NCBI GenBank assembly: GCA_013298125.1
Contig: JAAFJP010000028.1
Span: 1 to 64,000 of the forward strand
DNA: 64,000 nucleotides
From: Cytophagales bacterium
GTDB taxonomy: Bacteria > Bacteroidota > Bacteroidia > Cytophagales > Spirosomataceae
Direction of reading: 5' to 3'
A program made the position numbers and the translations under genes. The notes below the pieces were generated by a model that was not told the DNA's origin, did not search any database, and saw only the letters and a program-made list of their open reading frames with translations. Below, piece after piece: positions 3,799-20,496 of this stretch (position 1 is the stretch's first letter; the number at the start of each line of letters is the position of its first letter).

Positions 3799-4000
3799 GT
3801 GTTCGATTTGTGATTTAGTAATTTTGTATTCGACACACAAATATAGTTAAATTCAAATTGGTTAAGCACATGGTTAAGCATTTTTCTTTATCAAAACAGC
3901 ATTTAACTTGTATTAATTTAAACTCAAATTGAAAATTATTTTCATAAGTTGTTTAAATTCAGATATTTATATAAGTTTTTAGGCTTTACAGAAAATAGGC

Positions 4001-4059
4001 GTTTTAAGGGTCGTTAGTCCCGTCCAGACCGCAAATAGCACTTCTTTTGAAGTGCTATT
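4001..4059. repeat. att-like sequence, copy 1, with adjacent hairpin
   Basis: The core TCCCGTCCAGACCGC (4018-4032), preceded by TTTTAAGGG, matches 14 of 15 bases of a second copy at 15210-15224. It lies just outside the integrase promoter side, where element boundaries normally fall. It is followed by a perfect hairpin AATAGCACTTC / GAAGTGCTATT (4034-4044, 4049-4059). I read it as a duplicated attachment core, possibly the 3' end of an RNA gene with its terminator. No intact tRNA precedes it. Confidence 0.5.
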
Positions 4060-4125
4060 CGTGTTTTAGGAGGTTACTGGTAGGTGTTTTTTAGAGATTT
4101 TTGTTTTTTGAGGCTGATTTTCTAT

Positions 4126-4156
4126 TTTGGGAGTTGGCTTTTTTGTTTTACATTTG
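4126..4156 (+). promoter_or_regulatory. Promoter of the hsdRMS operon
   Basis: TTTG (4126-4129), 19-nt spacer, TACATTTG (4149-4156). This is an exact match to the Bacteroidota vegetative consensus TTTG-N19-TAnnTTTG. It sits 28 bases before the hsdR ATG, and no plus-strand gene lies directly upstream. Confidence 0.75.
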
Positions 4157-4184
4157 AATTCTATTTAAAATCAAACATACCTAT

Positions 4185-7100
4185 ATGGCTTTTAACGAAA
4201 ACACCCGTGTAAAAATCCCCGCAATACTTCACCTTTGTCGCCTTGGATATACCTATTTGTCTCTGAAAGAATTGGAGACCGAAAGCTCTACAAACATTCT
4301 TACTGATATTTTCACGGCGAGTATTCTTCGGATTAATCCTTCCTTAGAGCCTTCACAAACCAAGCGTATTTTTGAAGATGTTTCTCTCGTACTCGAAAAT
4401 GAGGATTTGGGAAAGGCTTTCTATGAAAAAATTACGGCTACTTCGGGCGTGAGATTAATTGACTTTAAAAATTTTGATAATAATTCGTTTCACGTTGTTA
4501 CGGAATATACTTTCAAAAATGGGGAAGATGAATTTCGCCCAGATATTACGCTGTTTATCAATGGTATGCCTTTGGCAATTATTGAGGTAAAAAAGCCTGA
4601 TAACGAACGTGGGATTCTTGCTGAAACTGACAGGATGCGGGATTCTCGAAATAAAAATAAAAAATTCCGAAAGTTTATCAATCAGTTTCAATTATTAGTT
4701 TTTTCTAATAATATGGAATATGACTCAGAGGCAATTGTGTCAATTCAAGGGGCTTTTTATGCCACAAGTTCCTATTCAGATGTACGAATTAATACTTTTA
4801 GAGAAGAACATACTTTCGACCTTGATACCTTACTAAAACCAGAAGATGATGATTTAGAAACCTTTGTTTTGAAAGATAACAACCTCAATGTTATCAAACA
4901 TTCTGATGAGTTTATTACCAACAAAGATACCAATACGCCCACTAATCGAATTCTTACTTCTTTGTTCAATAGGGAAAGATTTGAGTTTTTGCTCAGGTTC
5001 GGGATTGCATACGTGAAGGGAGAGAAAGGACTCGAAAAACACATCATGCGTTATCCTCAATTGTTTGCGACCAAAGCCATCGAAGCAACCATTGAAAGAG
5101 GTGAGAAAAAAGGTATTATTTGGCATACACAAGGAAGCGGGAAAACGGCTTTGGCTTTCTTCAATACTCATTATTTAACTGATTATTACCAACGTAAAAA
5201 TATTGTTCCCAAATTCTATTTCATCGTTGATAGACTTGATTTATTAGACCAAGCCGTTAGAGAGTTTAACAGTCGAGGGTTGAAAGTTCATACGGTAAAT
5301 TCAAAAGAAGAATTAATTACTGATTTTCAGGCTAAAAAAGCTATTCATAATATAACAGGACAACGAGAAATTACGGTTGTCAATATCCAAAAATTCAAGG
5401 AAGAAACCCATGTCCTCAAAACGGATGATTATGACTTAAATACACAACGTATCTACTTTTTGGACGAAGTACACCGCAGTTATAATCCTTCTGGAAGTTT
5501 CTTGGCTAATCTTTTCAATGCTGATAAAAATGCTATCATCATCGGACTCACAGGTACGCCTTTGATTGCCACCGATAGACGCTCAAAAGATACATTCGGG
5601 AATTATATTCACAAATTTTATTACAACCAATCCATTGCCGATGGTTATACCCTCAAATTGATTCGTGAGGGAATTGAAACGCAGTACAAAATGCAGTTGG
5701 CAGAGATTCTGAAAGAATTAAATATTCAGAAAGGAGGCATCGAAAAGAGGCAAATCTACGCCCATGAGCGTTTTGTTGAGCCTATGTTAAAATACATCGT
5801 TGATGATTTTGAGAATAGTCAAATCAAATTTGGCAAGCAAAATATTGGGGCAATGGTGGTTTGTGATAGTTCGGAACAGGCAGAACAATTATTCAAGATT
5901 TTCAATGAAAAATACGTTGTTCCAAGAATCGTCTCAATGGCTCAGTTTAAGAGTCAGTACCCGATGGCAGCCGAGGATTCTTCTGAATATAAACTACCTA
6001 AACCGCTTACAGGGGCTTTGATTTTGCATGATGCTGGCTCAAAAGATGAAATAAAGAAACAGATTCAGGATTTCAAAGAAGGAAGAATAGATTTTCTTTT
6101 CGTTTATCAGATGCTCCTGACGGGTTTTGATGCTCCACGCTTGAAAAAACTCTACATTGGACGTATCGTAAAAGACCATAATCTCTTGCAAACCCTTACC
6201 CGTGTAAACCGTCCATATAAGGACTTTCGATTTGGGTTTGTGGTGGATTTTGCGGATATTCAGAAAGAATTTGATGCCACCAACAAAGCCTATTTTGATG
6301 AACTTCAAGACGTTACAGGCGATGAGTTAGAAACGTATTCTAATCTCTTCAAATCCAAAGAAGAAATTGAGGCGGAAATCAAGGAAATCAAAGAATTATT
6401 GTTTCATTTTGACTTGAAAAATCGTGAACTTTTTTCACGACAAATTCAACAGATTCAAGACAAAAAACAGATTTTGGATATAAGAAAGGCTTTGGCTAAT
6501 CTGAAAAATATCTATAATCTTATCCGTCTGTATGGTCATTTTGATTTACTCGATAAAACAGATTTTCGTCTCTTCAATGACCTATACAAAGAAGCTGACA
6601 GGCACGTGGCTACCCTTAATCAAAAAGAAGCCATCGAAAATGATTCTGAAAATACCAATCTGTTGAACGTGGCTCTCGAAAACATCCTCTTTATGTTTCG
6701 GAAAGTCTCGGAGAATGAGTTAATTTTGGCTGATAAGCTGAAAGATACGCTTCGTAAAACTCGGGAAGAAATGGCTCATAATTTTGACCGAAACGACCCC
6801 GTTTTTGTCTCACTTTTTGAGGAATTGAAACGACTTTTCAAAAATAAAAAATTAGATGAAGTCTCTCAGGACGAAATGACCGCCAACATCGGAGCTTTGA
6901 AAATTATCTACAACAAAGCTCTCGAAATCAATCGGAAGAATAATCTATTGAAAGCCAAATACGATAACGATACTAAGTACGTCCGTGTACATAAGCGTAT
7001 TGTGGAACAAGGCAAAATCTCTAAGCGTGAGTCAGAAATCCACGAAACCCTCACGCTTATCAAACAGGAAGCTGACGATAAAGTGTTGTTAAACAATCGA

Positions 7101-9204: not shown

Positions 9205-10423
9205 GGCAATAAAGTTAAAAAATATAGCATCTTATTCTAACACAAGAATAAAGATTTCAGAAGTTACGCTTAATGATTTTATTACAACAGATAGTTTGCT
9301 TCAAAATAAAGCGGGAATTACAAAAGCTACTAATTTACCCCCACAAAATGGAGCAATGCCAGCTTATGAAGAAGGTAATATTTTGATAGGAAATATTCGT
9401 CCTTATTTAAAAAAAATATGGTTTGCAGATAGAAATGGAGGTGCTTCTGCGGATGTTTTAGTATTGAATGTAGATGAAAATTATGAGCCTAAATATGTGT
9501 ACTACGCACTATTTAGAGATGATTTTTTTGACCACATGATGAAGGGGTCAAAAGGTACAAAAATGCCAAGAGGTGATAAAAATCAAGTGTTAGAGTTTTT
9601 AATTCCCGATTTCAACCTCCCAACCCAACAAAAAATAGCCTCCGTTCTATCCAGTTTAGATGCCAAAATAGAACTCAATAACCGCATCAATGCCGAATTG
9701 GAAGCAATGGCAAAAACGCTGTATGATTACTGGTTTGTACAGTTTGATTTTCCAAGCCCCCCAACCCCCAGTAGGGGAGAAAATGAAGGAAAACCCTACA
9801 AATCAAGCGGTGGGGCAATGGTTTGGAGTGATGAGTTGAAAAGGGAGATTCCTGCGGGGTGGGAGGTGAAAACATTATTAGATATTGCTACCTATACAAA
9901 TGGATTAGCTTGTCAAAAATTTAGACCTGTAAATGATGATTATCTGAGGGTTATCAAAATCAGAGAAATGAAAGATGGATTCTCTGAAAGCTCCGAATTT
10001 GTACGTTCTGATATACCAGAAAAAGTAATTGTTGAAAATGGGGACATATTATTTTCATGGTCTGCATCATTAGAAGTCATCATTTGGGCAAAAGGTAGAG
10101 GTGCTTTGAATCAACATATTTTTAAAGTAACATCAAACAAATACCCTAAATCATTTTACTATTTTCAATTAGCAAACTACTTACAGCATTTCAAGATGCT
10201 TGCTGAAAATCGTAAAACTACAATGGGACACATTACACAAGAACATTTACAACAAAGTAGAATTGCTGTGCCTTCAAATAATGAATTGATTGAAAAGTTA
10301 GATAAAAAAATATCTCCAATTTTAGACAAACAGATAGCAATTGAACAAGAAAACCAACACTTATCTACTTTACGAGATTGGTTATTACCGATGTTGATGA
10401 ATGGGCAAGTGGTGGTGGAATGA
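9197..10423 (+). CDS. hsdS: Type I restriction enzyme specificity subunit S (HsdS)
   Basis: 408 residues with two target recognition domains separated by conserved helices. TRD1 covers about residues 1-140; the central conserved region reads QQKIASVLSSLDAKIELNNR around 150-185 and continues to the TLYDYWFVQFDFP segment. TRD2 covers about 215-350. The distal conserved helix ends in LRDWLLPMLMNGQ. HsdS determines the bipartite DNA target for both methylation and cleavage. The ATG at 9197 follows a GGGGAGGG stretch. It is the third gene of the operon and is separated from hsdM by the duplicated junction described above, which suggests that this specificity gene was exchanged. The frame is intact. 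Confidence 0.93.
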   Translation: MSKAIKLKNIASYSNTRIKISEVTLNDFITTDSLLQNKAGITKATNLPPQNGAMPAYEEGNILIGNIRPYLKKIWFADRNGGASADVLVLNVDENYEPKYVYYALFRDDFFDHMMKGSKGTKMPRGDKNQVLEFLIPDFNLPTQQKIASVLSSLDAKIELNNRINAELEAMAKTLYDYWFVQFDFPSPPTPSRGENEGKPYKSSGGAMVWSDELKREIPAGWEVKTLLDIATYTNGLACQKFRPVNDDYLRVIKIREMKDGFSESSEFVRSDIPEKVIVENGDILFSWSASLEVIIWAKGRGALNQHIFKVTSNKYPKSFYYFQLANYLQHFKMLAENRKTTMGHITQEHLQQSRIAVPSNNELIEKLDKKISPILDKQIAIEQENQHLSTLRDWLLPMLMNGQVVVE

Positions 10424-10469
10424 TGATAAAAAGTATAAATATTCTCCACATAAAATCGTAAAATTCATT

Positions 10470-12338
10470 ATGAACCAAAGAATAAAAAACAAAATTGAAG
10501 CCACCGATAAAAGCATTAGTAATCTACTGAAAAATCAAAAATTTACGATTGACTATTTTCAAAGGGAATACCGTTGGCAAGAAAAACACATGAAATCGTT
10601 GGTAGAAGACCTTACCAATACCTTCTTAAAGTCATACAATGAAGGCGATAGACGTAGTGATGTTCCAAATTATCAGAGCTATTATTTGGGTCCAGTTGTG
10701 TTTAATACCAATGTAGAGAGCAATAAAAAATCTATTATTGATGGTCAGCAAAGGATTACATCTTTGACTTTGATTTTAATTTATCTAAATCACTTACAGA
10801 AAGATAATTCTCAGAAAGTACCAATCAGTGACCTGATTTTTTCGGAAAGATATGGCGAAAAATCCTTTAATATGTCTGACGAATCACGTGAAGAGTGTTT
10901 GTCGGCATTGTTTGAGACAGGGCATTATTTCACAAAAGAGGGTGACGAAGAAAGTACAATTAACATCAAAGAGCGTTATGATGATATTGAAGAGAGTTTT
11001 CCAGAAGAGATAGATGCTTTTCGTTTACCTTTTTTTATAGATTGGCTCATTGAAAATGTAGTAATCGTTGAGATAACCGCCTATTCGGATGATAATGCCT
11101 ACACTATTTTTGAAACCATGAATGACCGAGGGTTGAATTTGACTCCAACGGAAATGTTGAAAGGTTATATATTATCAAAAATAACAGATAAAGAGAAACG
11201 AACAGAAATCAATAAACTTTGGAAAATTGAAATCCAGAAACTCCATGAATACGGAGACATAACCTCACAAAGTTTTTTTCAGGCATGGTTTAGGTCTAAA
11301 TATGCCGTCACGATGAGAGCGGGAAAGGTAGGCTCAGAGAATCAAGATTTTGAGTTGATAGGTTCACGGTTTCATAGTTGGTTCAAGGATAAGCACAAAG
11401 AATTATTCAATCTCAATACTTCCGATGATTTTTATTTGTACTTCAAAAGGCAGTTTCCTTTCTTTGTAAAATGGTATTTGAAAAGCCGTAAAAGACAGGA
11501 AGAATACCATGCCGACACACCACATCTCCACTATATTTATCACTGTGGTATTGCCGAATCATTGCAAGAGCCACTATTATTATCTCCGATAGAATATTCT
11601 GATAGTGAAGACATTATTTTGAAAAAAATGGATTATGTCGCTCGATACATTGAAACATTTACGGTGAGACGAAGTGTCAATTATCGTAAATATGGGCAAA
11701 CGGCAATTAAATATTCTATGTTCAATACCATCAAAATTATCAGAGATAATAATTTGGATGCTTTGAGTCATCATCTTGTGGCAGAAGTTGGGAAAATTTC
11801 TGAACAATTTAGCTCTATGCAGAGGTTTGGGTTGCACATGATGAACAGAAAGTTTATCAAACATTTATTGTCAAGGATTTCAAGTTTTGTTGATAATTTG
11901 GTTGGGAAAGATAGCAATTACGTAACGTACAGAGAGCCAAGCGGTAAATTATTTGAAATTGAACATATTTGGGCTAATAAATTTGAAGAGCATCTTGACG
12001 AGTTTTCACAGCAAGATGAATTTAGGCATTATCGTAACTTAATAGGAGCTTTAATACTTTTACCTCATGGCACAAATCAATCGTTTAATAGCGATAGATA
12101 TAATGCAAAAGTTGAATATTACATCAGGGAAAACACGTATGCACAGACTTTGCACCCGCATTATTATGTACGAAACCCTAATTTTTTAAATTCTCCAATC
12201 GTTCAAGAATTAGGTTTTAAATACCATTTGGAGTTTAGAAGAAACGATATAGAAGAACGCCAAGCCTTAGCACAACGCATCTGTGAAAGAATTTGGTCGA
12301 TTGATTTTTATGGAGGGAATAATCTTTTTAGGGATTAG
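10470..12338 (+). CDS. DUF262/DUF1524 (GmrSD-like) protein in the hsd locus
   Basis: 622 residues from the ATG at 10470; a longer frame overlapping the end of hsdS lacks a better start. The N-terminal DUF262 domain has the ParB/Srx-like signature IIDGQQRITSL near residue 90, a nucleotide-binding motif. The C-terminal DUF1524 domain has a His-Me (HNH-like) nuclease signature: EIEHIWAN near residue 495, followed by NLIGALILLP and NQSFNSDRY. Proteins with both domains include the type IV restriction enzyme GmrSD and several phage-defence genes that ride in type I R-M operons. It starts 46 bases after hsdS and is probably cotranscribed, so a defence nuclease against modified DNA, or an accessory to the R-M system, is likely. 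Its substrate is not visible from sequence. Confidence 0.85.
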   Translation: MNQRIKNKIEATDKSISNLLKNQKFTIDYFQREYRWQEKHMKSLVEDLTNTFLKSYNEGDRRSDVPNYQSYYLGPVVFNTNVESNKKSIIDGQQRITSLTLILIYLNHLQKDNSQKVPISDLIFSERYGEKSFNMSDESREECLSALFETGHYFTKEGDEESTINIKERYDDIEESFPEEIDAFRLPFFIDWLIENVVIVEITAYSDDNAYTIFETMNDRGLNLTPTEMLKGYILSKITDKEKRTEINKLWKIEIQKLHEYGDITSQSFFQAWFRSKYAVTMRAGKVGSENQDFELIGSRFHSWFKDKHKELFNLNTSDDFYLYFKRQFPFFVKWYLKSRKRQEEYHADTPHLHYIYHCGIAESLQEPLLLSPIEYSDSEDIILKKMDYVARYIETFTVRRSVNYRKYGQTAIKYSMFNTIKIIRDNNLDALSHHLVAEVGKISEQFSSMQRFGLHMMNRKFIKHLLSRISSFVDNLVGKDSNYVTYREPSGKLFEIEHIWANKFEEHLDEFSQQDEFRHYRNLIGALILLPHGTNQSFNSDRYNAKVEYYIRENTYAQTLHPHYYVRNPNFLNSPIVQELGFKYHLEFRRNDIEERQALAQRICERIWSIDFYGGNNLFRD

Positions 12339-12424
12339 ATGTACCTAATTTATAAATGAATTCAAAGAGCTTTGAGGAGTGATAATAATTGACATAAGAT
12401 ATAGAAGTCGGAGTCAGCATAAAG

Positions 12425-12462
12425 ACGGGTTACAGGAGATTTGATTCTGTAACCCGTTTTTG
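12425..12462 (+). terminator. Terminator of the hsd operon
   Basis: Perfect 11-bp stem ACGGGTTACAG (12425-12435) / CTGTAACCCGT (12447-12457) followed by TTTTTG. It closes the hsdRMS-DUF262 transcript. Confidence 0.8.
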
Positions 12463-12467
12463 TTTCA

Positions 12468-12491
12468 AAAAGTGCATCTTGATACACTTTT
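12468..12491 (+). promoter_or_regulatory. Putative HipB operator
   Basis: Inverted repeat AAAAGTGCAT-CTTG-ATACACTTTT with 9 of 10 arm bases matching, 60 bases upstream of the hipB ATG. HipB-type repressors bind such palindromes to autoregulate their operon. A weak -7-like TATATTTA follows at 12516-12523. Confidence 0.5.
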
Positions 12492-12550
12492 CGCTATTCA
12501 TAAAGAAATTTATCTTATATTTACACCAATAAACGCAATATGATGCACAA

Positions 12551-12754
12551 ATGAATAAAGAAAATTTAGGCTTAATCATCAAAGAAAGAAGAAAAATCTT
12601 GAAAATTCGGCAAGAGGATTTGGCTGAAATTTCGGATGTGGCTTTGCGTACCATTGTTTTGGTAGAACGTGGTGAGGGGAATCCTTCTTTGGAAACTTTG
12701 CTCAAAATCTCGGAAGTTTTGGGTATGGAACTTCAATTAAATGTGAAATTATGA
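12551..12754 (+). CDS. hipB: HipB-like antitoxin/repressor (XRE helix-turn-helix)
   Basis: 67 residues, all one XRE-type helix-turn-helix domain: LGLIIKERRKILKIRQEDLA (helices 1-2), then the recognition segment with SDVALRTIVLVERGEGNPSL. This is the sequence class of HipB antitoxins, which repress the hip operon and hold the HipA-type kinase inactive. The stop overlaps the next ATG (ATGA at 12751), so it is translationally coupled to hipS. The palindrome at 12468-12491 is a likely binding site. Because the toxin downstream is destroyed, this gene may survive only as a regulator. Confidence 0.85.
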   Translation: MNKENLGLIIKERRKILKIRQEDLAEISDVALRTIVLVERGEGNPSLETLLKISEVLGMELQLNVKL

Positions 12755-13074
12755 GAAAGGCAATCGTAAATATTAAGGGAATTTCTGCAGGAATTTTAGC
12801 AGAAAATGAGTCGGGTTTTGAGTTTAAATACGACGATATTTACTTTCAAAATCCTGCACAACGAGCTGTAAGTGTGACCATGCCCAAAACGCAACAAACT
12901 TATACTCATCCATCGCTTTTCCCAGTTTTTTATAATATGCTACCCGAAGGAGCAAACAAAGAAATGATTTGTCGTTCACTACGAATTGATGAAAATGATT
13001 TCTTTGGACTATTACTTGCCACTGCCCAATATGACACTATTGGAGCGATAACCATTACACCCATCAATGAGTGA
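12751..13074 (+). CDS. HipS-like protein (HipA N-terminal subdomain)
   Basis: 107 residues corresponding to the small N-terminal subdomain of HipA kinases (couple_hipA family): GISAGILAENESGFEF, then SVTMPKTQQTYTHPSLFPVF and LPEGANKEMICRSL. In single-chain HipA this part is fused to the kinase. In tripartite HipBST systems it is a separate protein, HipS, that acts as antitoxin to the kinase HipT. Here it ends with its own stop right where HipT should begin, so this was a HipBST-type operon. The reading frame is intact. Its binding partner is missing locally. Confidence 0.8.
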   Translation: MRKAIVNIKGISAGILAENESGFEFKYDDIYFQNPAQRAVSVTMPKTQQTYTHPSLFPVFYNMLPEGANKEMICRSLRIDENDFFGLLLATAQYDTIGAITITPINE

Positions 13075-13217
13075 TTCTCTTCTTTTTTCAGCAAGATTAC
13101 TCACAGACCCATCAACTAATAGTTAATTCTTTTCTCTCGGAGGAATTAAGAAAAATGTACAGTGACTTATACTTTGATAAATTGAAACGGTTGGGGTATT
13201 CTTATTTGAAAGTGTGA
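13071..13217 (+). pseudogene. 3' remnant of the hipT/hipA kinase gene
   Basis: After the hipS stop an open frame without a proper start encodes SFLSEELRKMYSDLYFDKLK and ends YSYLKV. This resembles the extreme C-terminus of HipA/HipT kinases (S-F-L-S-E-E-x-K-x-x-Y followed by an R/K-L-x-R-L helix). Everything else, including the ATP-binding and catalytic parts, is absent: about 45 codons remain of an expected 300. The gene was therefore deleted internally and cannot make a kinase. The identification rests on this short C-terminal signature and on position behind hipB-hipS. Confidence 0.6.
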
Positions 13218-13238
13218 GGAAATTGAGAGAGAAAATAG

Positions 13239-13274
13239 ACAGGTCATAGAATGGGATTCTATGACCTGTTTTTG
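13239..13274 (+). terminator. Terminator of the hip remnant operon
   Basis: Perfect 14-bp stem ACAGGTCATAGAAT (13239-13252) / ATTCTATGACCTGT (13256-13269) with loop GGG, followed by TTTTGC. It insulates the hip remnant from the next toxin-antitoxin pair. Confidence 0.85.
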
Positions 13275-13287
13275 CTTCTATAACAAT

Positions 13288-13344
13288 AAATGTCAAGTTT
13301 TTTGTATTAAAAACTTGACATTTATCTAATATAGTTTATCTTTG
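13288..13344 (+). promoter_or_regulatory. Promoter and operator of the AbiE-type operon; leaderless start
   Basis: A perfect inverted repeat AAATGTCAAGTTTTT (13288-13302) / AAAAACTTGACATTT (13309-13323) overlaps the -33 element TTG (13315-13317). After 19 bases comes the -7 element TATCTTTG (13337-13344). The antitoxin ATG is at 13350, five bases past the -7 box, so the transcript should be leaderless or almost so. AbiEi-type antitoxins are known autoregulators, and this palindrome is the natural operator. Confidence 0.65.
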
Positions 13345-13349
13345 TAACT

Positions 13350-14078
13350 ATGAATATTGCGACCCAAATAGCTACAAATATCAACTTAATACCCGAAGGG
13401 AAAACTTTTGGATATTCGCAGCTTAATATTGCCCTTCAAGACTTTACAACTGCCGCAAAAGCCATTGAAAGATTATACAAAAAAGGGATTATTAAAAAAC
13501 TATCAAAGGGTGTTTTTTATAAACCTAAACAATCCATTTTTGGAGAACTACGTCCTTCCGAGAGTGAGATTTTAAAAGATTTTCTTTATAAAGATGGTAA
13601 GCGAATAGCTTATATTACAGGGTCTTATCTCTATAATAGATTGGGGCTTACCACTCAATTAACCCACATAGTCAGAGTAGCATCCTTTTCAAAAACTATC
13701 TACATTAATAGAGGGAATATCGTTGCGAAGCCTGTGAAGAGTTATGCTTTGGTAACAGAAGAAAATTATCAGTTATTAGGCATTTTAGATGCTTTCAAAG
13801 ACATTAAAATTATTCCAGATGTAGATTTTGATGAAGCACTGGGCAGGTTAAGCCGTATTATTTCAAATTTAGAAGATAGAGGAGCATTAAGCGAATTGGT
13901 TAGATATGCACTGGTCTATCCACCACGTGCCAGAGCATTACTGGGGGCATTATTAGAGTTTAAAAAACTTTTTCAATATACAGAATCCTTAAAAAATAGT
14001 TTAAACCCTTTTACGGAAATTAACATAGGGATTTCTCCTACGCTTTTACCCACTGTTATAAACTGGAATATCAAATGA
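13350..14078 (+). CDS. AbiEi-type antitoxin/transcriptional regulator (DUF6088-like)
   Basis: 242 residues. The N-terminal 60 residues form a winged helix (GYSQLNIALQDFTTAAKAIE, then RLYKKGIIKKLSKGVFYKP, where the wing leads into a Tyr-Lys-Pro typical of AbiEi-like antitoxins). The C-terminal domain is mixed alpha/beta with AYITGSYLYNRLGLTTQLTH. These proteins repress their own operon and neutralise the nucleotidyltransferase toxin by a type IV mechanism. The stop overlaps the start of the toxin gene (ATGA at 14075). A palindrome directly upstream overlaps the promoter. The frame is intact even though the toxin frame is broken. Confidence 0.85.
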   Translation: MNIATQIATNINLIPEGKTFGYSQLNIALQDFTTAAKAIERLYKKGIIKKLSKGVFYKPKQSIFGELRPSESEILKDFLYKDGKRIAYITGSYLYNRLGLTTQLTHIVRVASFSKTIYINRGNIVAKPVKSYALVTEENYQLLGILDAFKDIKIIPDVDFDEALGRLSRIISNLEDRGALSELVRYALVYPPRARALLGALLEFKKLFQYTESLKNSLNPFTEINIGISPTLLPTVINWNIK

Positions 14079-15053
14079 CATTACACAACAATTCAGATTT
14101 ATTTAAAAAAGCGATTTTACGGACATCTGAGCAACTAAATATCTCAGAACTTTACATTGAAAAAGACTATTGGGTAACGTATGCAATTCGCACAATCTTT
14201 CAAGATGAAATCGGCAAATATACCGTGTTCAAAGGAGGTACAGCTCTGTTGAAATGTGATGGAATGATTCAAAGATTTTCAGAAGACATTGACTTAGTGA
14301 TACTTAGGGAAGGCAATGAAACCAGTAATCAATTAGGTAATAGAGTCAAAAGGATAAGCAAAGTGGTCAAAGATATTTTGGCGGAAGTTGCAGTAGATAA
14401 TATAACTCAGAAAATGGGTATGAATCGTAAAACGGCACACGAATACCCTAAAATATTTGATGGTGAATTTGGAGAAATAAGAAATATCATTGTTGTAGAA
14501 GCCACATGGTTAGGGTATTTTGAGCCTTATGTGAGTAGAAAAGTAAGTACGTTTATCTATCAAATGATGCAGGGTGTTGGTCAAGAAGGTATTGCCGAAC
14601 AATATGGATTGATGCCGTTTGATGTTTTGGTATTAGACCCCAGACGTACATTTTGTGAGAAAATTATGAGTTTGGTTCGCTTTTCATATACTGATAATCC
14701 AGTCGTTGATTTAGGGTTCAAAGTTCGCCATCCTTACGATTTGCATAAGTTGTTAGAAATTGAAAGAAATCAAATCATTTTTCTATTCAAAGGACTTTGA
14801 CACAATGCTTCTGAGAGTGGCAAATGATGATGTGAAGAGTTATAAAAATAATAATTCATGGCTTCAATTTCACCCAAGTAAAGCTCTAATTTTTGCGGAT
14901 ACTGAAACCGTCTGGAAGTCTCTAAAAGAATCTTACAATGGCACATTTAGAAACTTAGTTTTTGGTAATTTTCCGAAGGATAAAGAGGTTTTAGAAACGC
15001 TTTTGAAGATTAGGGATAGACTTTTAATGATTGTTTGGGAGGTTAGTGTGTAA
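14075..15053 (+). pseudogene. AbiEii-type nucleotidyltransferase toxin, frameshifted
   Basis: The first frame (14075-14800) carries the nucleotidyltransferase core: VFKGGTALLKCDGMIQRFSE near residues 52-71 and DIDLVI just after it, the GGT-S/A-L and D-x-D motifs of the AbiEii/AbiGii family. It shifts near 14762-14771, where GAAAGAAATC probably replaces GAAGAAATC. The rest of the protein continues in the +1 frame (EIKSFFYSKDFDTMLLRVAN) to 15053. No real start lies before the second part (only TTG). One extra A in a short A run explains the break, so it could be natural inactivation or a sequencing error. If repaired the toxin would be about 325 residues, a normal family length. Confidence 0.8.
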
Positions 15054-15325: not shown

Positions 15326-17557
15326 TCAATCCACTAATAACCCCGTAACCGCCGCCGTATTTCTCGCCCACGTGAGGTCATAAATTTCGTCTGCATCTTT
15401 GGTCTCAATAATTGTTAAACCTTGGGCTTCTGCCTTGATTTTCAACAAGTTACCGATACTTAATTTGGCATCTAATTTATTCAAAATGGCTTCTACGTTT
15501 TGGGTATCTAAGCCCTGTACAACTTGTCCGTGGAAGGTCATTTCTAACCAAATAATTTCACGAGTCGCTACTTTCAATACACCAAACACCAAGCCTTTTG
15601 CTAAATTTTGCGTGATTCTCACTTGGTGTTGCACACACGAAGGGTCGTAGGCAACGCCAGTACGCTCCGAGATTTTCATTGGAAATTGGCTATTCATCCA
15701 ACCTACCACCAAATTTGGCGTGATGCTCCCCGCACTGTACGCATTACACGTAAAGGTTACGTATTTTGCCCCAGCATTCGCTAATTCGTTGATATTCAAT
15801 TCGATATATTCGGCAGTACCAATTTTATTTGGAATGCTACGAATATCTCCGCTATGTTTACAACCCGTAGTACGCAAGTTACTGTATGAACAATAATCAG
15901 TATAGCTTTCGTAAGCAATGTTACAGCTCAAATCCATATCCAAATGTTGGGCAGGTAAGCCTTCGCCCCACTGCATAAACAAACGGACGGTATCACCCTC
16001 GACGGCAAAACGTGTTCCCATCAATGCCGATGGCAAGTCCTGAACATTGTCTGAACGGTCACCGATTGACACTGGCATTTTGAAAAGATTTGGTTCGATA
16101 TACATCGTTTTGTTGGCATTTTCGATGTTCATAAAACGATTCATCATCGCTGATAAACACAAATCTTCTACCTTAGTTTTCATCAAATCCAATTGCACTT
16201 GGTCATAAATCGACAATAATTGATTAGCTGGAATTCGTTTAGAAACCCCACCCAATGGCTTCACAGAGCGATTTTGTGATTTATTGAAATAGTTTTGGGC
16301 GTACATATTCAACGTAAAAACCAAACGAGCTGGCACTTTGTCAATCACTTGTTCAAATGCCTTTACCGTATCATCCGCCCCAAACCAAAGCATATTCGCA
16401 AACAACGAACGGGCAAATAATCCTGGGCGTTGTTTCAACAAATTAAAGGTTTTGTCGGCATCCATTCGTAAACGAAATTCATTTACTCGACCTTGAAAAA
16501 CCGTATAATTTTCGTTGTAAAAAACATCTAAAATCTCGTTCAAATGTTGGAAACCGTCTCTTTTGGCGTATTCCGACAAACGCAAAGCACGAATAAAGCG
16601 TACCCACATACCACGTTTTGGGTGCATGATTTCGCAAGCAGCTTTTGCGTCAATGGTTAAATTATTCAACCATTTTGCCACCATCAAACCTTCTTTACGA
16701 GTGTATTTTAACTTCAATTCTTGTTTTTTAGACAAAGAAGCCGAAGCACTCACATCAAGTGGGTTATAGATGTGTGCATGATTGCTTTTAGTACGTTTCA
16801 CAATCGTTTTTGGCTCAATGATTTGTAAAAAACCAGTATGTTTAAACCATAAATATCGTAAAATATCCGTTGGCGAAGTGAATAAATCATTCGCTTTATC
16901 TGACTGATTATTAGCCACATATACATCTATCACCGCCATTAACGTTTCTTTCATTCCGATAGTAACTTCTGGCATTGGCAATTCGGTCAAAAGGATTTTT
17001 AGACTATCCATTTGGGTGGCATCCAAAGCCGTTTTTGACGATAATAAATCTTTCAAAAATACCGAAGCATCTTCTTCCGACCATAAAGTCAAATGTTTTT
17101 TCTTTGAACCTTGTCCAGTTTTTTCAATCTTTCCGAACTCAAAAGGCGTTCCACAAAATGGACAACCATTGTAGCGTTCTAATGGAAAAGTATTGGCAGG
17201 AATTGTGTGTCCGCAAGCTAATTGCGTACCTTTTCCACCAAAAATATTAGTATAAAAAGTAAGAATATGGTCGATTACGGATTCGCCCGTAGGCACGTCC
17301 CAACCTTTCACCAAAGGAGTCCAGTTTTTGTTTACGCCCATTTTTTGACGAAAAATCTCTAACAATTTTGCTTGAAAAACTGGCGTAGTTCCGTTCAAGG
17401 CAATCAATAAATCTTCGGAAACGGTATAGCCCAAGTTTCCGAGATTGGCAACCAAAACAGATGTCGTTCCTCGAAGGATTTTCGAGTCATTTTTGATGTC
17501 TGTTTTTGCAATAAAAATTGCTGATTGACGAAGGCTAACGCTTAATAAATTTTCCAT
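15326..17557 (-). CDS. RING-like zinc-finger and TerD-like domain protein (MXAN_6230/SCO0854-like)
   Basis: 743 residues, ATG at 17555-17557, no signal peptide, so cytoplasmic. Residues 1-110 are helical (NLGYTVSEDLLIAL). A treble zinc ligand cluster follows: Cys115, His117, Cys132 and Cys135 in ACGHTIP and GCPFCGTPF, like prokaryotic RING/zinc-ribbon fingers. Residues 260-450 are all-helical repeats that could form a HEAT-like solenoid. Residues about 530-700 resemble a TerD fold, with LDMDLSCNIAYES, KHSGDIRS and a YIELNINEL strand. The layout matches the family I know as MXAN_6230/SCO0854 RING domain proteins; the function is unknown, and TerD proteins belong to calcium-linked stress systems. 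The gene follows the tRNA-like RNA array on the same strand and ends toward the defence island. Confidence 0.7.
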   Translation of the reverse strand: MENLLSVSLRQSAIFIAKTDIKNDSKILRGTTSVLVANLGNLGYTVSEDLLIALNGTTPVFQAKLLEIFRQKMGVNKNWTPLVKGWDVPTGESVIDHILTFYTNIFGGKGTQLACGHTIPANTFPLERYNGCPFCGTPFEFGKIEKTGQGSKKKHLTLWSEEDASVFLKDLLSSKTALDATQMDSLKILLTELPMPEVTIGMKETLMAVIDVYVANNQSDKANDLFTSPTDILRYLWFKHTGFLQIIEPKTIVKRTKSNHAHIYNPLDVSASASLSKKQELKLKYTRKEGLMVAKWLNNLTIDAKAACEIMHPKRGMWVRFIRALRLSEYAKRDGFQHLNEILDVFYNENYTVFQGRVNEFRLRMDADKTFNLLKQRPGLFARSLFANMLWFGADDTVKAFEQVIDKVPARLVFTLNMYAQNYFNKSQNRSVKPLGGVSKRIPANQLLSIYDQVQLDLMKTKVEDLCLSAMMNRFMNIENANKTMYIEPNLFKMPVSIGDRSDNVQDLPSALMGTRFAVEGDTVRLFMQWGEGLPAQHLDMDLSCNIAYESYTDYCSYSNLRTTGCKHSGDIRSIPNKIGTAEYIELNINELANAGAKYVTFTCNAYSAGSITPNLVVGWMNSQFPMKISERTGVAYDPSCVQHQVRITQNLAKGLVFGVLKVATREIIWLEMTFHGQVVQGLDTQNVEAILNKLDAKLSIGNLLKIKAEAQGLTIIETKDADEIYDLTWARNTAAVTGLLVD

Positions 17558-17578
17558 TTTTTGAATTGTGAGTATTTT

Positions 17579-17647
17579 AAACTTAGAGGTTTGGAGGATT
17601 AGAGAAGAGAAAAATTAATAACTCTAATCCTCTAAATCTCTAAGTTT
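17579..17647 (-). repeat. Long hairpin repeat, copy 1
   Basis: Arms of 26 bases starting AAACTTAGAGGTTTGGAGG pair with the arm ending in CTCTAAGTTT, with only two mismatches. It lies between the RNA array and the RING/TerD gene. A close relative lies at 20513-20581, after the WYL gene, so the two copies frame the cassette. It could act as a processing or termination element. Confidence 0.65.
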
Positions 17648-17657
17648 AAATATTTGA

Positions 17658-17728
17658 AAATCAGGTAATTAAGTTTCTGAGTTCTACCAAAGAGAGTTTT
17701 TTGAAGTAAGAAACTTTTGACCTAAATT
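17658..17728 (-). ncRNA. Structured RNA element E (Y-RNA-like hairpin, tRNA-derived loop)
   Basis: On the minus strand: lower stem AATTTAGGT / ACCTGATTT (one mismatch), internal loop CAA opposite AATT, upper stem AAGTTTCT / AGAAACTT (8 bp, perfect), then TTACTTC opening an apical loop that contains CTTTGGTAGAAC, similar to a tRNA D arm. The order lower stem ending GGT, CAA, upper stem, TTACTTC, AATT, ACC is the same as in elements A and D. The last element of the array before the RING/TerD gene. Confidence 0.55.
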
Positions 17729-17735
17729 GTTTTTG

Positions 17736-17817
17736 AATTAATGGTAATTAGAAGACTTTTTGGAGTCGATGACCCGCAAGCCATATCGAAGAAGTAAGTC
17801 TTCTTTGACCATTAATT
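17736..17817 (-). ncRNA. Structured RNA element D (Y-RNA-like hairpin, tRNA-derived loop)
   Basis: The cleanest unit. On the minus strand the lower stem AATTAATGGT / ACCATTAATT is a perfect 10 bp, the internal loop is CAA against AATT, and the upper stem AGAAGACTT / AAGTCTTCT is a perfect 9 bp. The apical part starts TTACTTC and contains GCGGGTCATCGACTCC, which resembles a tRNA T arm. It starts 3 bases after the split tRNA-like element. The repeated secondary structure with different stem sequences in A, D and E implies that structure is what is conserved. Confidence 0.6.
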
Positions 17818-17820
17818 TTG

Positions 17821-18015
17821 CGAAACAGGCAGGATTCGAACCTGCGACCCACGGCGTGAAAGGCTATGGAGTAAGTATTGATTGACCTGAAAATTATCAA
17901 ACTTAGGACTTGAACCTAAAAACCTCCGAGGAGATTCTTACCGAGAGAAGTAAGTTTAATTTGACCTGATAATTTCAAAACTTTTCGTTGCTCTATCCAA
18001 CTGAGCTACTGTTTC
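17821..18015 (-). ncRNA. tRNA-like RNA interrupted by a 121-nt insertion
   Basis: Minus strand, 5' end at 18015. Acceptor GAAACAG pairs with CTGTTTC (7 bp, discriminator G, no encoded CCA). D arm GCTC / GAGC with loop AGTTGGATA. T arm GCAGG-TTCGAAT-CCTGC. Anticodon arm ATAGC-CTTTCAC-GCCGT (one mismatch) with a UUC loop triplet. Without the insertion (17868-17988) these pieces total exactly 74 nt, the length of a normal tRNA. The insertion sits between tRNA positions 26 and 27, not in the anticodon loop. It contains a second T-arm-like hairpin TTAGG-TTCAAGT-CCTAA, a variable-arm-like stem AATCTC / GAGGTT, a long stem GAAATTATC / GATAATTTTC, and two copies of GGTCAA followed by TTACTYC. It is probably not a functional translation tRNA. 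Confidence 0.7.
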
Positions 18016-18020
18016 ATTTT

Positions 18021-18092
18021 TCAAAAGAGGTAATTGACAATTTTGATTTCGTGGAAGGAAGTTGAAGTAAAATAATCTTGACCAGCTTTTGA
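18021..18092 (-). ncRNA. Structured RNA element A (Y-RNA-like hairpin)
   Basis: First element of the array on the minus strand. Lower stem TCAAAAG / CTTTTGA (7 bp) continued by GGT / ACC after a small internal loop, then CAA against AATT, and upper stem GATTATTTT / AAAATTGTC with one mismatch. TTACTTC opens the apical loop. The layout is the same as in elements D and E. It ends 5 bases before the tRNA-like element. I find no convincing Bacteroidota promoter directly upstream; TAATTTTT near 18138 is the best partial match. Confidence 0.5.
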
Positions 18093-18158
18093 TGATACAA
18101 AGTTGGAAAGCCAGTACGCAGTCTATTTGCGTAGATAAAAATTAATTGAAAAATATTT

Positions 18159-18229: not shown

Positions 18230-18784
18230 ATGAAAAAGCACAATGGAATGCGTCCACAAGATGTTGTTATTATTTTGAAAATAATTTCATCTTCAATAAC
18301 AAAAAATAAATTAGACGATAGTAAAAGTGAGGTTTTGAATAATAAAAATATTGCCAAAAACTTACAAATGAGTGAGGCTGAAATTTCAGAATCACTGAGG
18401 AGGTCTGAATATGCAGGACTTATTACAGATAAAATTACCAAAAAAGTAAATCAAAGAGCTTTCTTGGATTTTTTACTTTATGGGATAAAATATGTCTTTC
18501 CTGTACACCCAGGGGCATTAGTGCGTGGAGTTCCGACGGCACATTCAGCGTTACCTATGAAAGATAAAATTGTCTCGGATGAATTATTTGTTTGGCAACA
18601 TCCAGAGGGTATAGTAAGAGGACAAGCCATAGAACCGCTTTATCATACTGTTCCCAAAATTGTTGAAGAAGACCCAAAACTGTATGAATTATTGGCTTTG
18701 GTTGATTGCATACGCACAGGTACTTCAAGAATAAACAATATTGCAGTAAAAGAATTAGAAAATAGAATATTGAACGGATGGTAA
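18230..18784 (+). CDS. Winged-helix HTH protein, probable antitoxin/repressor of the NTase pair
   Basis: 184 residues. The N-terminal part contains a MarR-like winged helix: PQDVVIILKIISSS, then NKNIAKNLQMSEAEISESLR (recognition helix) and EYAGLITDKITKKV (wing). The C-terminal 100 residues are mixed, with LVRGVPTAHSALPMK and LYELLALVDCIRTGTSRINN. It overlaps the next gene by 7 bases (ATGGTAA), so the two are coupled. A DNA-binding protein followed by a nucleotidyltransferase is the arrangement of type IV AbiE-like and MenAT-like toxin-antitoxin modules. The palindrome over its promoter is a natural operator. I cannot name a precise family. Confidence 0.7.
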   Translation: MKKHNGMRPQDVVIILKIISSSITKNKLDDSKSEVLNNKNIAKNLQMSEAEISESLRRSEYAGLITDKITKKVNQRAFLDFLLYGIKYVFPVHPGALVRGVPTAHSALPMKDKIVSDELFVWQHPEGIVRGQAIEPLYHTVPKIVEEDPKLYELLALVDCIRTGTSRINNIAVKELENRILNGW

Positions 18785-19473
18785 ATAGTTTTAAAAATAT
18801 AGTCAGAATTAAAGTATTGGCGGAGGCTTTTTCTAAGTTGAAAAATAAAGTTGTTTTTGTCGGTGGTGCAGTCGTGGAATTATATTGTGATGACTCCGCA
18901 AGAGGAGAGGTCAGACCAACTGACGATGTTGATGTGGTTGTCGAAATTGTAAATTTAGGCTCTTACGCAACTCTGGAAGAAGATTTGAGAGCAATTGGTT
19001 TCAATCATGATATGTTTTCATCTGTTATGTGTCGTTATAAATATCACGATATTGTGATTGACATAGTGCCTACTGATGAACACATTTTAGGCTTCACTAA
19101 TATTTGGTATAAAGACGGATTACAGAATAGTATTTCGTTTGATTTGGAGGATAATTTAACAATCCAGATTTTTACTTTACCATATTTTTTAGGTTCAAAA
19201 TTCGAGGCACTAAAATCTGACCGACACGGCAAAGATTATCGGTATAACAGTGATTTTGAAGACATTATCTATATTTTTGATAATCGAATAAATATCAAAA
19301 ACGAGCTTATTGAATGTACAGATGAAGTCAAAATTTATTTACAAAAAAGTATTTCAGAACTTATGAAACGCCCTTATATTGAAGAAGAAATAGTCTCAAA
19401 TTTAGAATATTCCTCTTCTAATCAACGGAAAGATAGAGTTATATCAATTTGGGAATCATTCATAAAGTCATAA
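18778..19473 (+). CDS. Nucleotidyltransferase, probable toxin partner
   Basis: 231 residues. The N-terminal half has the nucleotidyltransferase signature: VFVGGAVVELY near residue 25, then RPTDDVDVVVE near residue 47, giving the GG and D-x-D metal-binding pair of the pol-beta superfamily, as in AbiEii/MNT proteins. A third acidic position may be Asp in YHDIVIDIVPT. The C-terminal half is helical and contains SKFEALKSDRHGKDYRYNSD, found in such NTases. Related toxins modify tRNA 3' ends or other targets. The neighbourhood of a tRNA-like RNA array makes tRNA an attractive substrate, but that is inference. The frame is intact, unlike the AbiEii gene at 14075. Confidence 0.75.
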   Translation: MVNSFKNIVRIKVLAEAFSKLKNKVVFVGGAVVELYCDDSARGEVRPTDDVDVVVEIVNLGSYATLEEDLRAIGFNHDMFSSVMCRYKYHDIVIDIVPTDEHILGFTNIWYKDGLQNSISFDLEDNLTIQIFTLPYFLGSKFEALKSDRHGKDYRYNSDFEDIIYIFDNRINIKNELIECTDEVKIYLQKSISELMKRPYIEEEIVSNLEYSSSNQRKDRVISIWESFIKS

Positions 19474-19491: not shown

Positions 19492-20496
19492 ATGCCCGCA
19501 AACCGCAACGCCCTCATTCGCTATAAAACCATTGATGCTTGTCTGAAAAACCGATTCAGAAAATGGACTTTGGAAGATATAATCCAGAAAGTGTCTGATA
19601 CGCTCTATGAATATGAGGGCATAGACAAGGACATTAGCAAGAGGACTATCCAGAACGATATTCAGATGATGCGGAGTGATAAATTGGGCTATTTTGCTCC
19701 AATCGTGGTTTTGGATAAAAAATATTATACCTACGAAGACCCAAATTACAGCATTACCAACACACCCATTTCTGAAAATGACCTTTCCAGAATGAACGAA
19801 GCCGTGGAAATGCTGAAACAATTTAAAGGTTTTTCGCACTTTGAACAACTCAATGAAGTCGTCCAGAAATTAGAAGACCACGTGTATTCTACGGGTAAAA
19901 AGAAGAGTTCAGTGATTGATTTTGAGAAGAACGATAGCTTGAAAGGACTGTCGTATTTGGATATTTTGTATCAATCTGTGGTTCAGAAAAAGGCTATCCA
20001 AATGACTTATCAATCCTTCACGGCTCGTGAGGCAAACGTATTTTTCTTTCACGTTTGGTGGTTAAAAGAGTTCAAAAATCGTTGGTTTGCCGTGGGCGTA
20101 CGCAAAGAAAACGGCGGATTATCAAACTTGGCTTTGGATAGAATTATTGATGTAAGTTTATCAGACGAAATACCCTACATAGAAAACGAAAGCATGACTC
20201 CCGATGAATTTTACAAAGACATCATCGGCGTAACCGTAACCAATCTCCGCCCCATGAAATTAAAGTTATTTGTAGAAAAATCGCACGCTCCTTATGTGGA
20301 AACCAAACCACTGCATCATTCTCAACAAGTATTAGAAAGGACAGACAATGGCATCATCATCCAGATTCAAGTACAACACAATTATGAGTTAGAAAGAGAG
20401 ATTTTGGGCTTCGGAGAAATCATGAAAGTCCTTGAACCAGAGGGGTTTATGAAGAAGATTAAGCAAAGATTGGGGAGGGCTGGGGCAAATTATTGA
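19492..20496 (+). CDS. WYL-domain transcriptional regulator
   Basis: 334 residues. An N-terminal winged helix (about 5-75: YKTIDACLKNRFRKWTLEDI, then DISKRTIQNDIQMMRSDKLG) is followed by a WYL domain: AIQMTYQSFTA near residue 165, then HVWWLKEFKNRWFAVGVRKE, where the Trp-Tyr-Leu stretch varies to WWL, and a C-terminal WCX extension. WYL proteins are ligand-sensing (often nucleic-acid- or nucleotide-sensing) regulators common in phage-defence and RNA-repair loci. It lies 18 bases after the NTase gene and is probably cotranscribed with it. The stop is followed by the second copy of the long hairpin repeat. It is a likely regulator of the cassette, though its ligand is unknown. Confidence 0.88.
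   Translation: MPANRNALIRYKTIDACLKNRFRKWTLEDIIQKVSDTLYEYEGIDKDISKRTIQNDIQMMRSDKLGYFAPIVVLDKKYYTYEDPNYSITNTPISENDLSRMNEAVEMLKQFKGFSHFEQLNEVVQKLEDHVYSTGKKKSSVIDFEKNDSLKGLSYLDILYQSVVQKKAIQMTYQSFTAREANVFFFHVWWLKEFKNRWFAVGVRKENGGLSNLALDRIIDVSLSDEIPYIENESMTPDEFYKDIIGVTVTNLRPMKLKLFVEKSHAPYVETKPLHHSQQVLERTDNGIIIQIQVQHNYELEREILGFGEIMKVLEPEGFMKKIKQRLGRAGANY

What the first reader, a model, noticed from the sequence alone, without database searches (positions are those of the whole stretch)
17821..18015. A complete tRNA fold split by 121 nt between positions 26 and 27
On the minus strand the acceptor (GAAACAG/CTGTTTC), D arm, an anticodon arm with a UUC loop triplet and a T arm with TTCGAAT add up to exactly 74 nt once 17868-17988 is removed. 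The flanks resemble a tRNA-Arg body. The insertion is not in the anticodon loop where group I introns sit, and it carries its own T-arm-like hairpin, a variable-arm-like hairpin and a long closing stem. A tRNA nested within a tRNA-like RNA is not a standard gene.
Basis: partly seen in the sequence, partly recalled or inferred. Interest (0 to 1): 0.9.

Follow-up and report, generated by a model that had tools for sequence, protein, structure and literature searches.

The report
tRNA with a Y-RNA hairpin inside
A bacterial tRNA-shaped RNA carries, inside its anticodon arm, the kind of hairpin that Ro60-family RNA-quality-control proteins bind; dozens of related bacteria keep the same arrangement next to a Ro60-like protein gene and often an RNA-repair ligase gene, which points to an undescribed RNA-repair system whose RNA partner is built on a whole tRNA.

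Summary
A 195-nt minus-strand element (18015-17821) is a tRNA body interrupted by 121 nt. The insert is two nested Y-RNA-type hairpins (GGTCAA...ACTTACTTC / AATTACC). It lies in an array of such Y RNAs directly upstream of a RING-(helical)-TerD gene.

This is a conserved system. All 80 homologous Bacteroidota loci carry the motif upstream. Of 62 non-redundant interrupted tRNAs, 54 regain a perfect anticodon stem when the insert is removed (shuffles: mean 3.6). The stems covary. In 291 genomes a covariance model finds single-Y chimeras in 35, all carrying the protein. The protein's middle domain resembles Ro60 best, moderately. A shared operator precedes the array, the genome's Ro60/tRNA array and rtcB. 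RtcB flanks the protein gene in 34 of 80 loci.

Best reading: a tRNA-scaffolded Y RNA serving a Ro60-like protein in an RNA-repair regulon. Removal of the insert as a true intron is not excluded, but anticodons differ between close species. Expression, protein binding and splicing are untested.

The parts
18115..18133 (.). palindrome TACGCA-N7-TGCGTA, likely operator of the array (a Bacteroidota -7-like ACTTTG follows about 12 nt downstream on the minus strand)
   Evidence: same palindrome upstream of the array in 74 of 80 homologous loci, 0.05 expected from shuffles; exact sites in own genome at the Ro60/tRNA array (two), this array, upstream of rtcB, and one inside a coding gene
18029..18083 (-). 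Y RNA 1 (simple): GGTCAAGATTATTTTACTTC ... AAAATTGTCAATTACC
   Evidence: motif search of own genome; sequence
17821..18015 (-). tRNA-Y chimera, 195 nt: tRNA body interrupted in the anticodon stem
   Evidence: Rfam tRNA 41 bits; ARAGORN intron mode; energy fold
17986..18015 (-). 5' part of the tRNA: acceptor 18015-18009, D stem 18006-18003/17993-17990, anticodon-stem nt 27-29 (ACG)
17865..17985 (-). 121-nt insert
17968..17983 (-). outer Y hairpin, 3'-type strand (AAGTTTTGAAATTATC), placed first
   Evidence: pairs with 17874-17887; nested pairing beats sequential pairing in 9 of 9 nested chimeras
17889..17966 (-). inner Y RNA: 5' strand 17966-17947, hairpin AAGAATCTC/GAGGTTTTT, T-arm-like TTAGG-TTCAAGT-CCTAA 17919-17903, 3' strand ending 17889
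17868..17887 (-). outer Y hairpin, 5'-type strand (GGTCAATCAATACTTACTCC), placed second
17821..17864 (-). 3' part of the tRNA: anticodon-stem nt 30-31 (GC), loop CTTTCAC 17862-17856, GCCGT 17855-17851, variable loop, T arm 17845-17829, acceptor 17828-17822, discriminator G 17821
17737..17816 (-). Y RNA 4 (simple, ATTAATGGTCAAAGAAGACTTACTTC ... AAAGTCTTCTAATTACCATTAAT)
17664..17722 (-). Y RNA 5 (simple): GGTCAAAAGTTTCTTACTTC ... AGAAACTTAATTACC
15326..17557 (-). 743-aa protein: RING-like zinc finger (about 115-136), helical domain resembling Ro60 (about 150-500), TerD-like domain (about 515-690); distant relative of NCBIfam MXAN_6230/SCO0854
   Evidence: NCBIfam E 5e-36, below its cut-off; TerD fold Z up to 14.4; Ro60 structures rank 1-4 for the helical domain
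19492..20496 (+). WYL-domain regulator, candidate binder of the palindrome (inferred)
   Evidence: Pfam WYL/WCX; homologue within 4 kb of the RING gene in 50 of 80 loci

Best explanation
The element is a tRNA-scaffolded Y RNA. The array is probably transcribed on the minus strand from the palindrome-bearing promoter and trimmed by the ordinary tRNA maturation enzymes. This would give a stable L-shaped RNA with tRNA ends and elbow and, branching from the middle of the anticodon stem, a Y-type helix-bulge-helix. That hairpin would be the docking site of the Ro60-like RING/TerD protein encoded next door. The tRNA body would bring this ribonucleoprotein to tRNA-handling factors or mimic tRNA for a tRNA-damaging or tRNA-repairing enzyme. 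The system belongs to an RNA-repair regulon that also includes rtcB and, in this genome, the canonical Ro60/tRNA array. Shown here: anatomy, covariation, conservation, exclusive co-occurrence with the protein, shared palindrome, linkage to rtcB. Inferred: transcription, tRNA-like processing, protein binding, Ro60 homology (moderate), the role in tRNA repair, and the WYL protein as regulator.
For: Motif GGTCAR...TACTTC upstream of the RING gene on the coding strand in 80 of 80 homologous loci, with one other occurrence in the flanks; in the own genome 5 of 7 hits lie in this 400-bp array and the one exact hit elsewhere lies inside a coding gene. Interrupted tRNA bodies with a Y motif in nearly all loci. 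Y helix, not used for selection: 92% of cells paired, 6 of 8 pairs with two-sided changes; whole structure 97.7% paired against 32-51% when slid. Anticodon stem, not used for selection: 54 of 62 restored, shuffles mean 3.6, maximum 8. Covariance model R1: 35 of 291 genomes with chimeras above ordinary tRNAs, all 35 RING-positive, none among 246 RING-negative. Helical domain: the four best VIA-align rows are Ro60 (9nen Z 8.4, 276 residues, 5.2 A; 9nep and 9nfa 7.5; 1yvp 7.2), next row 6.5 over 91 residues. RtcB beside RING in 34 of 80 loci; RtcB in 43 of 45 RING-positive against 108 of 246 RING-negative genomes. A distant RING homologue in Variovorax lies beside rtcR. Same palindrome 62 bp before the own rtcB start codon. 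Discriminator followed by C, as in the genome's ordinary tRNAs.
Against: No expression or binding data. The protein has no Pfam TROVE match, profile comparison with TROVE proteins shows nothing, Foldseek alone had no significant hit, and Z 8.4 for a helical repeat domain is moderate by the tool's own calibration. Retention of a full 5-bp anticodon stem and a 7-nt loop with U33 in most chimeras is more than a mere scaffold needs, and fits an intron at least as well.
Confidence: 0.62

Rival explanations
1. True protein-spliced bacterial tRNA intron. The Y-containing insert is cut out of a pre-tRNA by an unknown (possibly damage-induced) nuclease and the halves are joined by RtcB, releasing a spare tRNA when the RNA-repair regulon is on.
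For: Removal gives a perfect tRNA in 54 of 62 chimeras; the spliced 74-mer is a canonical cloverleaf. Anticodon loops look like real isoacceptor loops (Lys, Arg, Glu, Asp, Gly, His, Pro, Met). RtcB linkage and co-occurrence. Stress-induced spare tRNA arrays co-regulated with rtcB exist in Anabaena (PMC10272220).
Against: On one body, in mostly one genus, the anticodon varies at its central base (TTT 36, TCT 13, other 7 of 56), which a decoding tRNA would not allow. An ordinary tRNA-Glu(UUC) exists in the genome. Split points vary (28/29, 29/30, or in the loop). No bacterial protein-dependent tRNA splicing endonuclease is known (own knowledge). The insert carries the conserved Y motif and seems to be the selected part.
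Confidence: 0.15
2. Cis-acting leader: the array is the 5' untranslated region of the RING gene and the protein autoregulates by binding it.
For: Array always directly upstream and in the same orientation (80 of 80); last Y motif usually 70-100 nt before the start codon.
Against: Chimeras also occur far from the RING gene (46 kb away in G421, several prophage-like loci in G440, and G061, G459). Full tRNA acceptor, elbow and 3'-end features are unnecessary for a leader. The Ro60 locus of the same genome also has its Y RNAs and tRNAs upstream.
Confidence: 0.12
3. Degenerate tRNA gene into which a Y RNA gene happened to insert, now non-functional.
For: Rfam score of 41 bits is lower than most tRNAs of the genome.
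Against: Same architecture with compensatory changes in many genera, nested form conserved between families, strict co-occurrence with the RING protein.
Confidence: 0.03
4. Attachment site: the chimeric tRNA genes are kept mainly because integrases use them as tRNA-type attachment sites.
For: In G440 and G421 chimeras lie next to Phage_integrase genes.
Against: The arrays looked at beside the RING gene show no integrase; the idea does not explain the Y motif, operator or RING/RtcB linkage.
Confidence: 0.03

Closest known systems
YrlA-type bacterial Y RNAs (Salmonella YrlA, PDB 6CU1)
   Same: Ro-binding-type helix attached to a tRNA-shaped module with T and D arms
   Different: YrlA is a circularly permuted tRNA (PMC11472068). 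Here the tRNA is not permuted and has open 5' and 3' acceptor ends; the Y hairpin is the permuted part and branches from the anticodon stem. The adjacent protein is not a recognisable TROVE protein.
Ro60/Rsr (TROVE) with Y RNA, including rsr-yrlBA-rtcBA RNA-repair operons (PMC7790460)
   Same: Ring-like helical RNA-binding protein (by fold, moderate), Y RNAs in its upstream region, link with RtcB and tRNA damage
   Different: Protein carries RING and TerD-like domains instead of the vWA domain and has no TROVE sequence signature; regulation probably by a WYL protein, not RtcR
MXAN_6230/SCO0854 family RING domain protein (NF041916)
   Same: Homologous over much of the length (E 5e-36)
   Different: Below the family cut-off (124 of 600 bits); no RNA partner has been described for that family as far as I know
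tRNA introns (bacterial group I; archaeal and eukaryotic splicing-endonuclease introns)
   Same: Intervening sequence in the anticodon arm of a tRNA gene, clean tRNA if removed
   Different: No group I match, wrong position and too short; structured Ro-type motif; anticodon not conserved
Anabaena trn operon with rtcB under TrcR (PMC10272220)
   Same: tRNA array and rtcB under one regulator, induced by translational stress
   Different: No Y motif or interrupted tRNAs reported in the passages read; TrcR is a ribbon-helix-helix protein

Membership tests
tRNA | cloverleaf with acceptor, D, anticodon and T arms | tested here: met
   met for acceptor, D and T arms as they stand; anticodon arm complete only after removing 121 nt
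tRNA | conserved decoding identity (anticodon) | tested here: not met
   anticodon differs on the same body between related species
Y RNA (Ro60-associated) | helix-bulge-helix Ro-binding stem with conserved GGUCAA/ACUUAC and AAUUACC strands | tested here: met
   motif, pairing and covariation; equivalence to Ro-binding stems is by comparison with the Y RNAs beside the own Ro60 gene and own knowledge
Y RNA (Ro60-associated) | bound by a Ro60 protein | not testable with these tools
   genomic linkage only
YrlA | circularly permuted tRNA-like module closed at the acceptor end | tested here: not met
   5' and 3' acceptor strands are the outer ends of the element
Group I intron | group I catalytic core, insertion in anticodon loop | tested here: not met
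   no Rfam group I match; split 29/30 in the stem; 121 nt
Archaeal/eukaryotic tRNA intron | bulge-helix-bulge at exon-intron borders, splicing endonuclease | not tested
   no border motif was modelled; no search for a splicing endonuclease was made
TROVE/Ro60 protein | TROVE sequence signature | tested here: not met
   no Pfam match; profile comparison with 19 TROVE proteins gives probability 0.2%
TROVE/Ro60 protein | HEAT-repeat ring fold of Ro60 | tested here: inconclusive
   Ro60 structures are the four best VIA-align rows (Z 7.2-8.4 over 261-276 residues), Foldseek not significant
TROVE/Ro60 protein | C-terminal vWA domain | tested here: not met
   C-terminal domain matches TerD structures, Z 14.4 for 3ibz
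MXAN_6230/SCO0854 RING protein | score above NCBIfam cut-off | tested here: not met
   124 of 600 bits: a relative, not a member of the equivalog

The most novel reading that the evidence does not exclude
A protein-dependent tRNA splicing or conditional tRNA-release system in Bacteria. Y-RNA-type inserts held by a Ro60-like protein sit in the anticodon stem of tRNA genes and are removed, with RtcB sealing the halves, when the RNA-repair regulon is switched on.
Probability: 0.13. Interest if true: 0.97.

Novelty: new variant of a known kind. Interest (0 to 1): 0.86.

Why it matters
Bacterial Y RNAs were known to mimic tRNAs, but as permuted mimics whose purpose is unclear. Here the Ro-type motif sits in an intact, non-permuted tRNA body, conserved through much of Bacteroidota, with a new Ro60-like RING/TerD partner and linkage to RtcB. 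This makes the question of what bacterial Ro/Y complexes do with tRNAs directly testable in culturable Flavobacterium. It also warns annotators: Rfam calls these RNAs tRNA and ARAGORN misses them, so both gene counts and tRNA-intron surveys are affected.

Tried and rejected
Chance fold: rejected by conservation and covariation. Group I intron: no Rfam match. Sequential pairing of the four Y strands in the nested form: worse than nested pairing in 9 of 9. Recognisable TROVE sequence in the RING protein: none; PDB sequence search uninformative. Foldseek with the full model and with the domain gave no significant hit. No viral contig carries the single-Y hairpin pattern in the exact form searched. 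NCBIfam search for the RING family over the phylum is insensitive for this subfamily; the alignment search replaced it. Key papers on YrlA (RNA 2014, Structure 2018, Annu Rev Microbiol 2020) are not in the library, so details of YrlA rest on PMC11472068, PMC7790460 and own knowledge. Literature searches for the RING family with Y RNA, and for tRNA arrays with RtcB or interrupted bacterial tRNAs, found no description of this system.

Full report
What is in the sequence. On the minus strand at 18015-17821 the window holds a tRNA body interrupted by 121 nt. Rfam's tRNA model finds it at exactly these coordinates (41.0 bits against a cut-off of 29). ARAGORN finds nothing without introns, and tRNA-Glu(ttc) with a 121-nt intron when introns are allowed. 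Removing 17985-17865 leaves ACGGC-CTTTCAC-GCCGT with all five pairs, so the interruption lies between tRNA positions 29 and 30, inside the anticodon stem. The body is closest to the genome's own tRNA-Arg(UCU) (76% identity), while the loop is that of tRNA-Glu. An ordinary tRNA-Glu(UUC) is present elsewhere in the genome.

What the insert is. It contains two copies of GGTCAA-N6-(C)TTACTYC, and further copies stand on both sides (starts at 18083, 17966, 17887, 17810 and 17722, all minus). In the 5.85-Mb genome five of the seven hits of this motif lie in this 400-bp stretch; of the other two, the exact one lies inside a coding gene and the one-mismatch hit was not examined further. Each copy is the 5' strand of a helix-bulge-helix whose 3' strand ends in AATTACC or AATTATC, the form of a Ro60-binding Y RNA stem. 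In the insert the order is 3' strand, 5' strand, 3' strand, 5' strand. Nested pairing (outer 3' strand with last 5' strand, inner pair within) scores better than sequential pairing in nine of nine nested cases. It also appears in the unconstrained minimum-energy fold of the 195 nt, together with the tRNA acceptor, D and T arms (-49.8 kcal/mol, z -2.8).

Conservation. The gene downstream on the same strand (15326-17557) encodes a 743-aa protein. Eighty homologous loci with organism names were fetched from Bacteroidota (Flavobacterium, Emticicia, Niastella, Chitinophaga, Aquimarina, Tenacibaculum, Microscilla, Saprospiraceae and others). All 80 have the Y motif upstream of the gene on the coding strand, up to 11 copies, and there is one other occurrence in the flanks. 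A strict search for split tRNA bodies found interrupted tRNAs containing the Y motif in nearly every locus: most have a single Y hairpin, about ten the nested form. Hymenobacter and Segatella plasmids have them too.

Structure tests. In an alignment of 29 single-Y chimeras 97.7% of cells pair, against 32-51% when the partners are slid. Eighteen of 27 pairs show two-sided changes, including six of eight pairs of the Y helix. The acceptor, D and T stems were selection criteria, so their pairing percentage is partly built in; the Y helix and the anticodon stem were not. For the anticodon stem, 54 of 62 non-redundant chimeras regain at least 4.5 of 5 pairs when the insert is removed, against a mean of 3.6 (maximum 8) with shuffled arms. 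Splits are mostly at 28/29 (Flavobacterium, GG|ACA-CTTTTAA-TGTCC) or 29/30 (as here); in others the Y hairpin sits in the loop. The anticodon itself is not conserved: of 56 chimeras of the 28/29 type, 36 read TTT, 13 TCT and 7 something else, with U33 in 55. The discriminator is followed by C, as in the genome's ordinary tRNAs, so tRNA-like 3' maturation is plausible (inference).

Co-occurrence. A covariance model of the single-Y form was run on 291 genomes of the order. Matches above every ordinary tRNA (61.6 bits and more; the best ordinary tRNA 59.8, a threshold set after seeing the gap) occur in 35 genomes. All 35 are among the 45 that encode the protein, and none among the 246 that do not. 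Genomes are related, so the Fisher value is not a probability of independent events. The window's own nested form is too long for that model.

The partner protein. It is a distant relative of NCBIfam NF041916, MXAN_6230/SCO0854 RING protein (E 5e-36 but below cut-off). AlphaFold2 models show a TerD-like C-terminal domain (VIA-align Z 14.4 to 3ibz) and a helical middle domain (pLDDT 84). For the middle domain the four best VIA-align rows are all Ro60 (Z 8.4, 7.5, 7.5, 7.2 over 261-276 residues), above unrelated rows at 6.5 and less over about 90 residues. Foldseek alone was not significant and no sequence signature of TROVE was found. I treat Ro60 kinship as likely but not shown.

Regulon and neighbours. 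A palindrome TACGCA-N7-TGCGTA lies upstream of the array (18115-18133) and in 74 of 80 homologous loci, with 0.05 expected. The own genome has five exact sites: two at the canonical Ro60 gene with its array of tRNAs and Y RNAs, one here, one 62 bp before the rtcB start codon, and one inside a coding gene. RtcB lies within 4 kb of the RING gene in 34 of 80 loci and a WYL regulator, homologous to the one at 19492-20496 here, in 50 of 80. RtcB is present in 43 of 45 RING-positive against 108 of 246 other genomes. A distant RING homologue in Variovorax neighbours rtcR. In Anabaena a stress-induced tRNA array and rtcB share one repressor (PMC10272220), and in Salmonella Ro60, Y RNAs and rtcBA form an operon responding to damaged tRNAs (PMC7790460).

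How it most likely works. The array gives a set of Y RNAs, some of them built into a tRNA body. The body offers tRNA ends and elbow; the Y hairpin, branching from the anticodon stem, docks the Ro60-like RING/TerD protein. The ribonucleoprotein acts in tRNA quality control or repair with RtcB. Anatomy, covariation, co-occurrence and linkage are shown; transcription, processing, binding and function are inferred. The main rival is true splicing: the restored anticodon arm and RtcB linkage favour it, the drifting anticodon and absence of any known bacterial splicing endonuclease speak against it.

Relation to known things. It works like a tRNA-mimicking Y RNA but is not a YrlA, which is a circularly permuted tRNA closed at the acceptor end (permutation: PMC11472068; closed end: own knowledge); here the tRNA keeps open ends and the Y stem is in the anticodon arm. 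It is not a group I intron, and by its anticodon drift not a plain decoding tRNA gene. I found no description of this arrangement in the accessible literature; several key papers were not readable, so novelty is judged with that reserve.

Noticed in passing
L022 (own genome C18:28000-40000), TROVE gene at 2826-4451 minus, tRNA array 4566-6576: Canonical Ro60 gene with an upstream array of 11 ARAGORN tRNAs, several of low score, interspersed with Y RNAs whose stem replaces the acceptor stem or holds a permuted T-arm/D-arm module; under the same palindrome as the window's array.
   Followed up: partly
L246 (own genome C34), palindrome at 3751, rtcB 3813-5357: rtcB has the same TACGCA-N7-TGCGTA palindrome directly before its start codon, suggesting one RNA-repair regulon.
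   Followed up: yes
L240, L244, L245 (genome G440) and L239 (G421): Chimeric tRNA-Y genes lie beside phage integrase genes in prophage-like regions, away from the RING gene; they may serve as attachment sites or be carried by the elements.
   Followed up: partly
L162 (Variovorax plasmid): Distant RING-finger homologue beside rtcR, followed by short hairpins with CTTCCTTCTAA that resemble the Y motif.
   Followed up: partly
L106 913-1908: Array with a T4 Rnl2-type RNA ligase gene upstream (Pfam RNA_ligase, T4_Rnl2_C); a homologue also lies in L094.
   Followed up: partly
window 17576-17650: Near-perfect inverted repeat between the array and the RING gene, with about 30 related copies across the genome: a small mobile or REP-like repeat.
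   Followed up: no
window 10401-14800 and 18230-19473: Defence-type neighbours: GmrSD-like type IV restriction protein, HipA N-terminal fragment with a small HTH gene, DUF6088/AbiEii pair, and a second AbiEii-like gene preceded by an HTH-like gene, divergent from the array.
   Followed up: partly
L078, L239, L240, L243: Chimeras with other bodies (Glu/Gln-like D arms such as TCGTTTAACGGTTAGGACG, or GGGTCAG...CTGACCC), so the Y insertion is found in more than one tRNA lineage.
   Followed up: no
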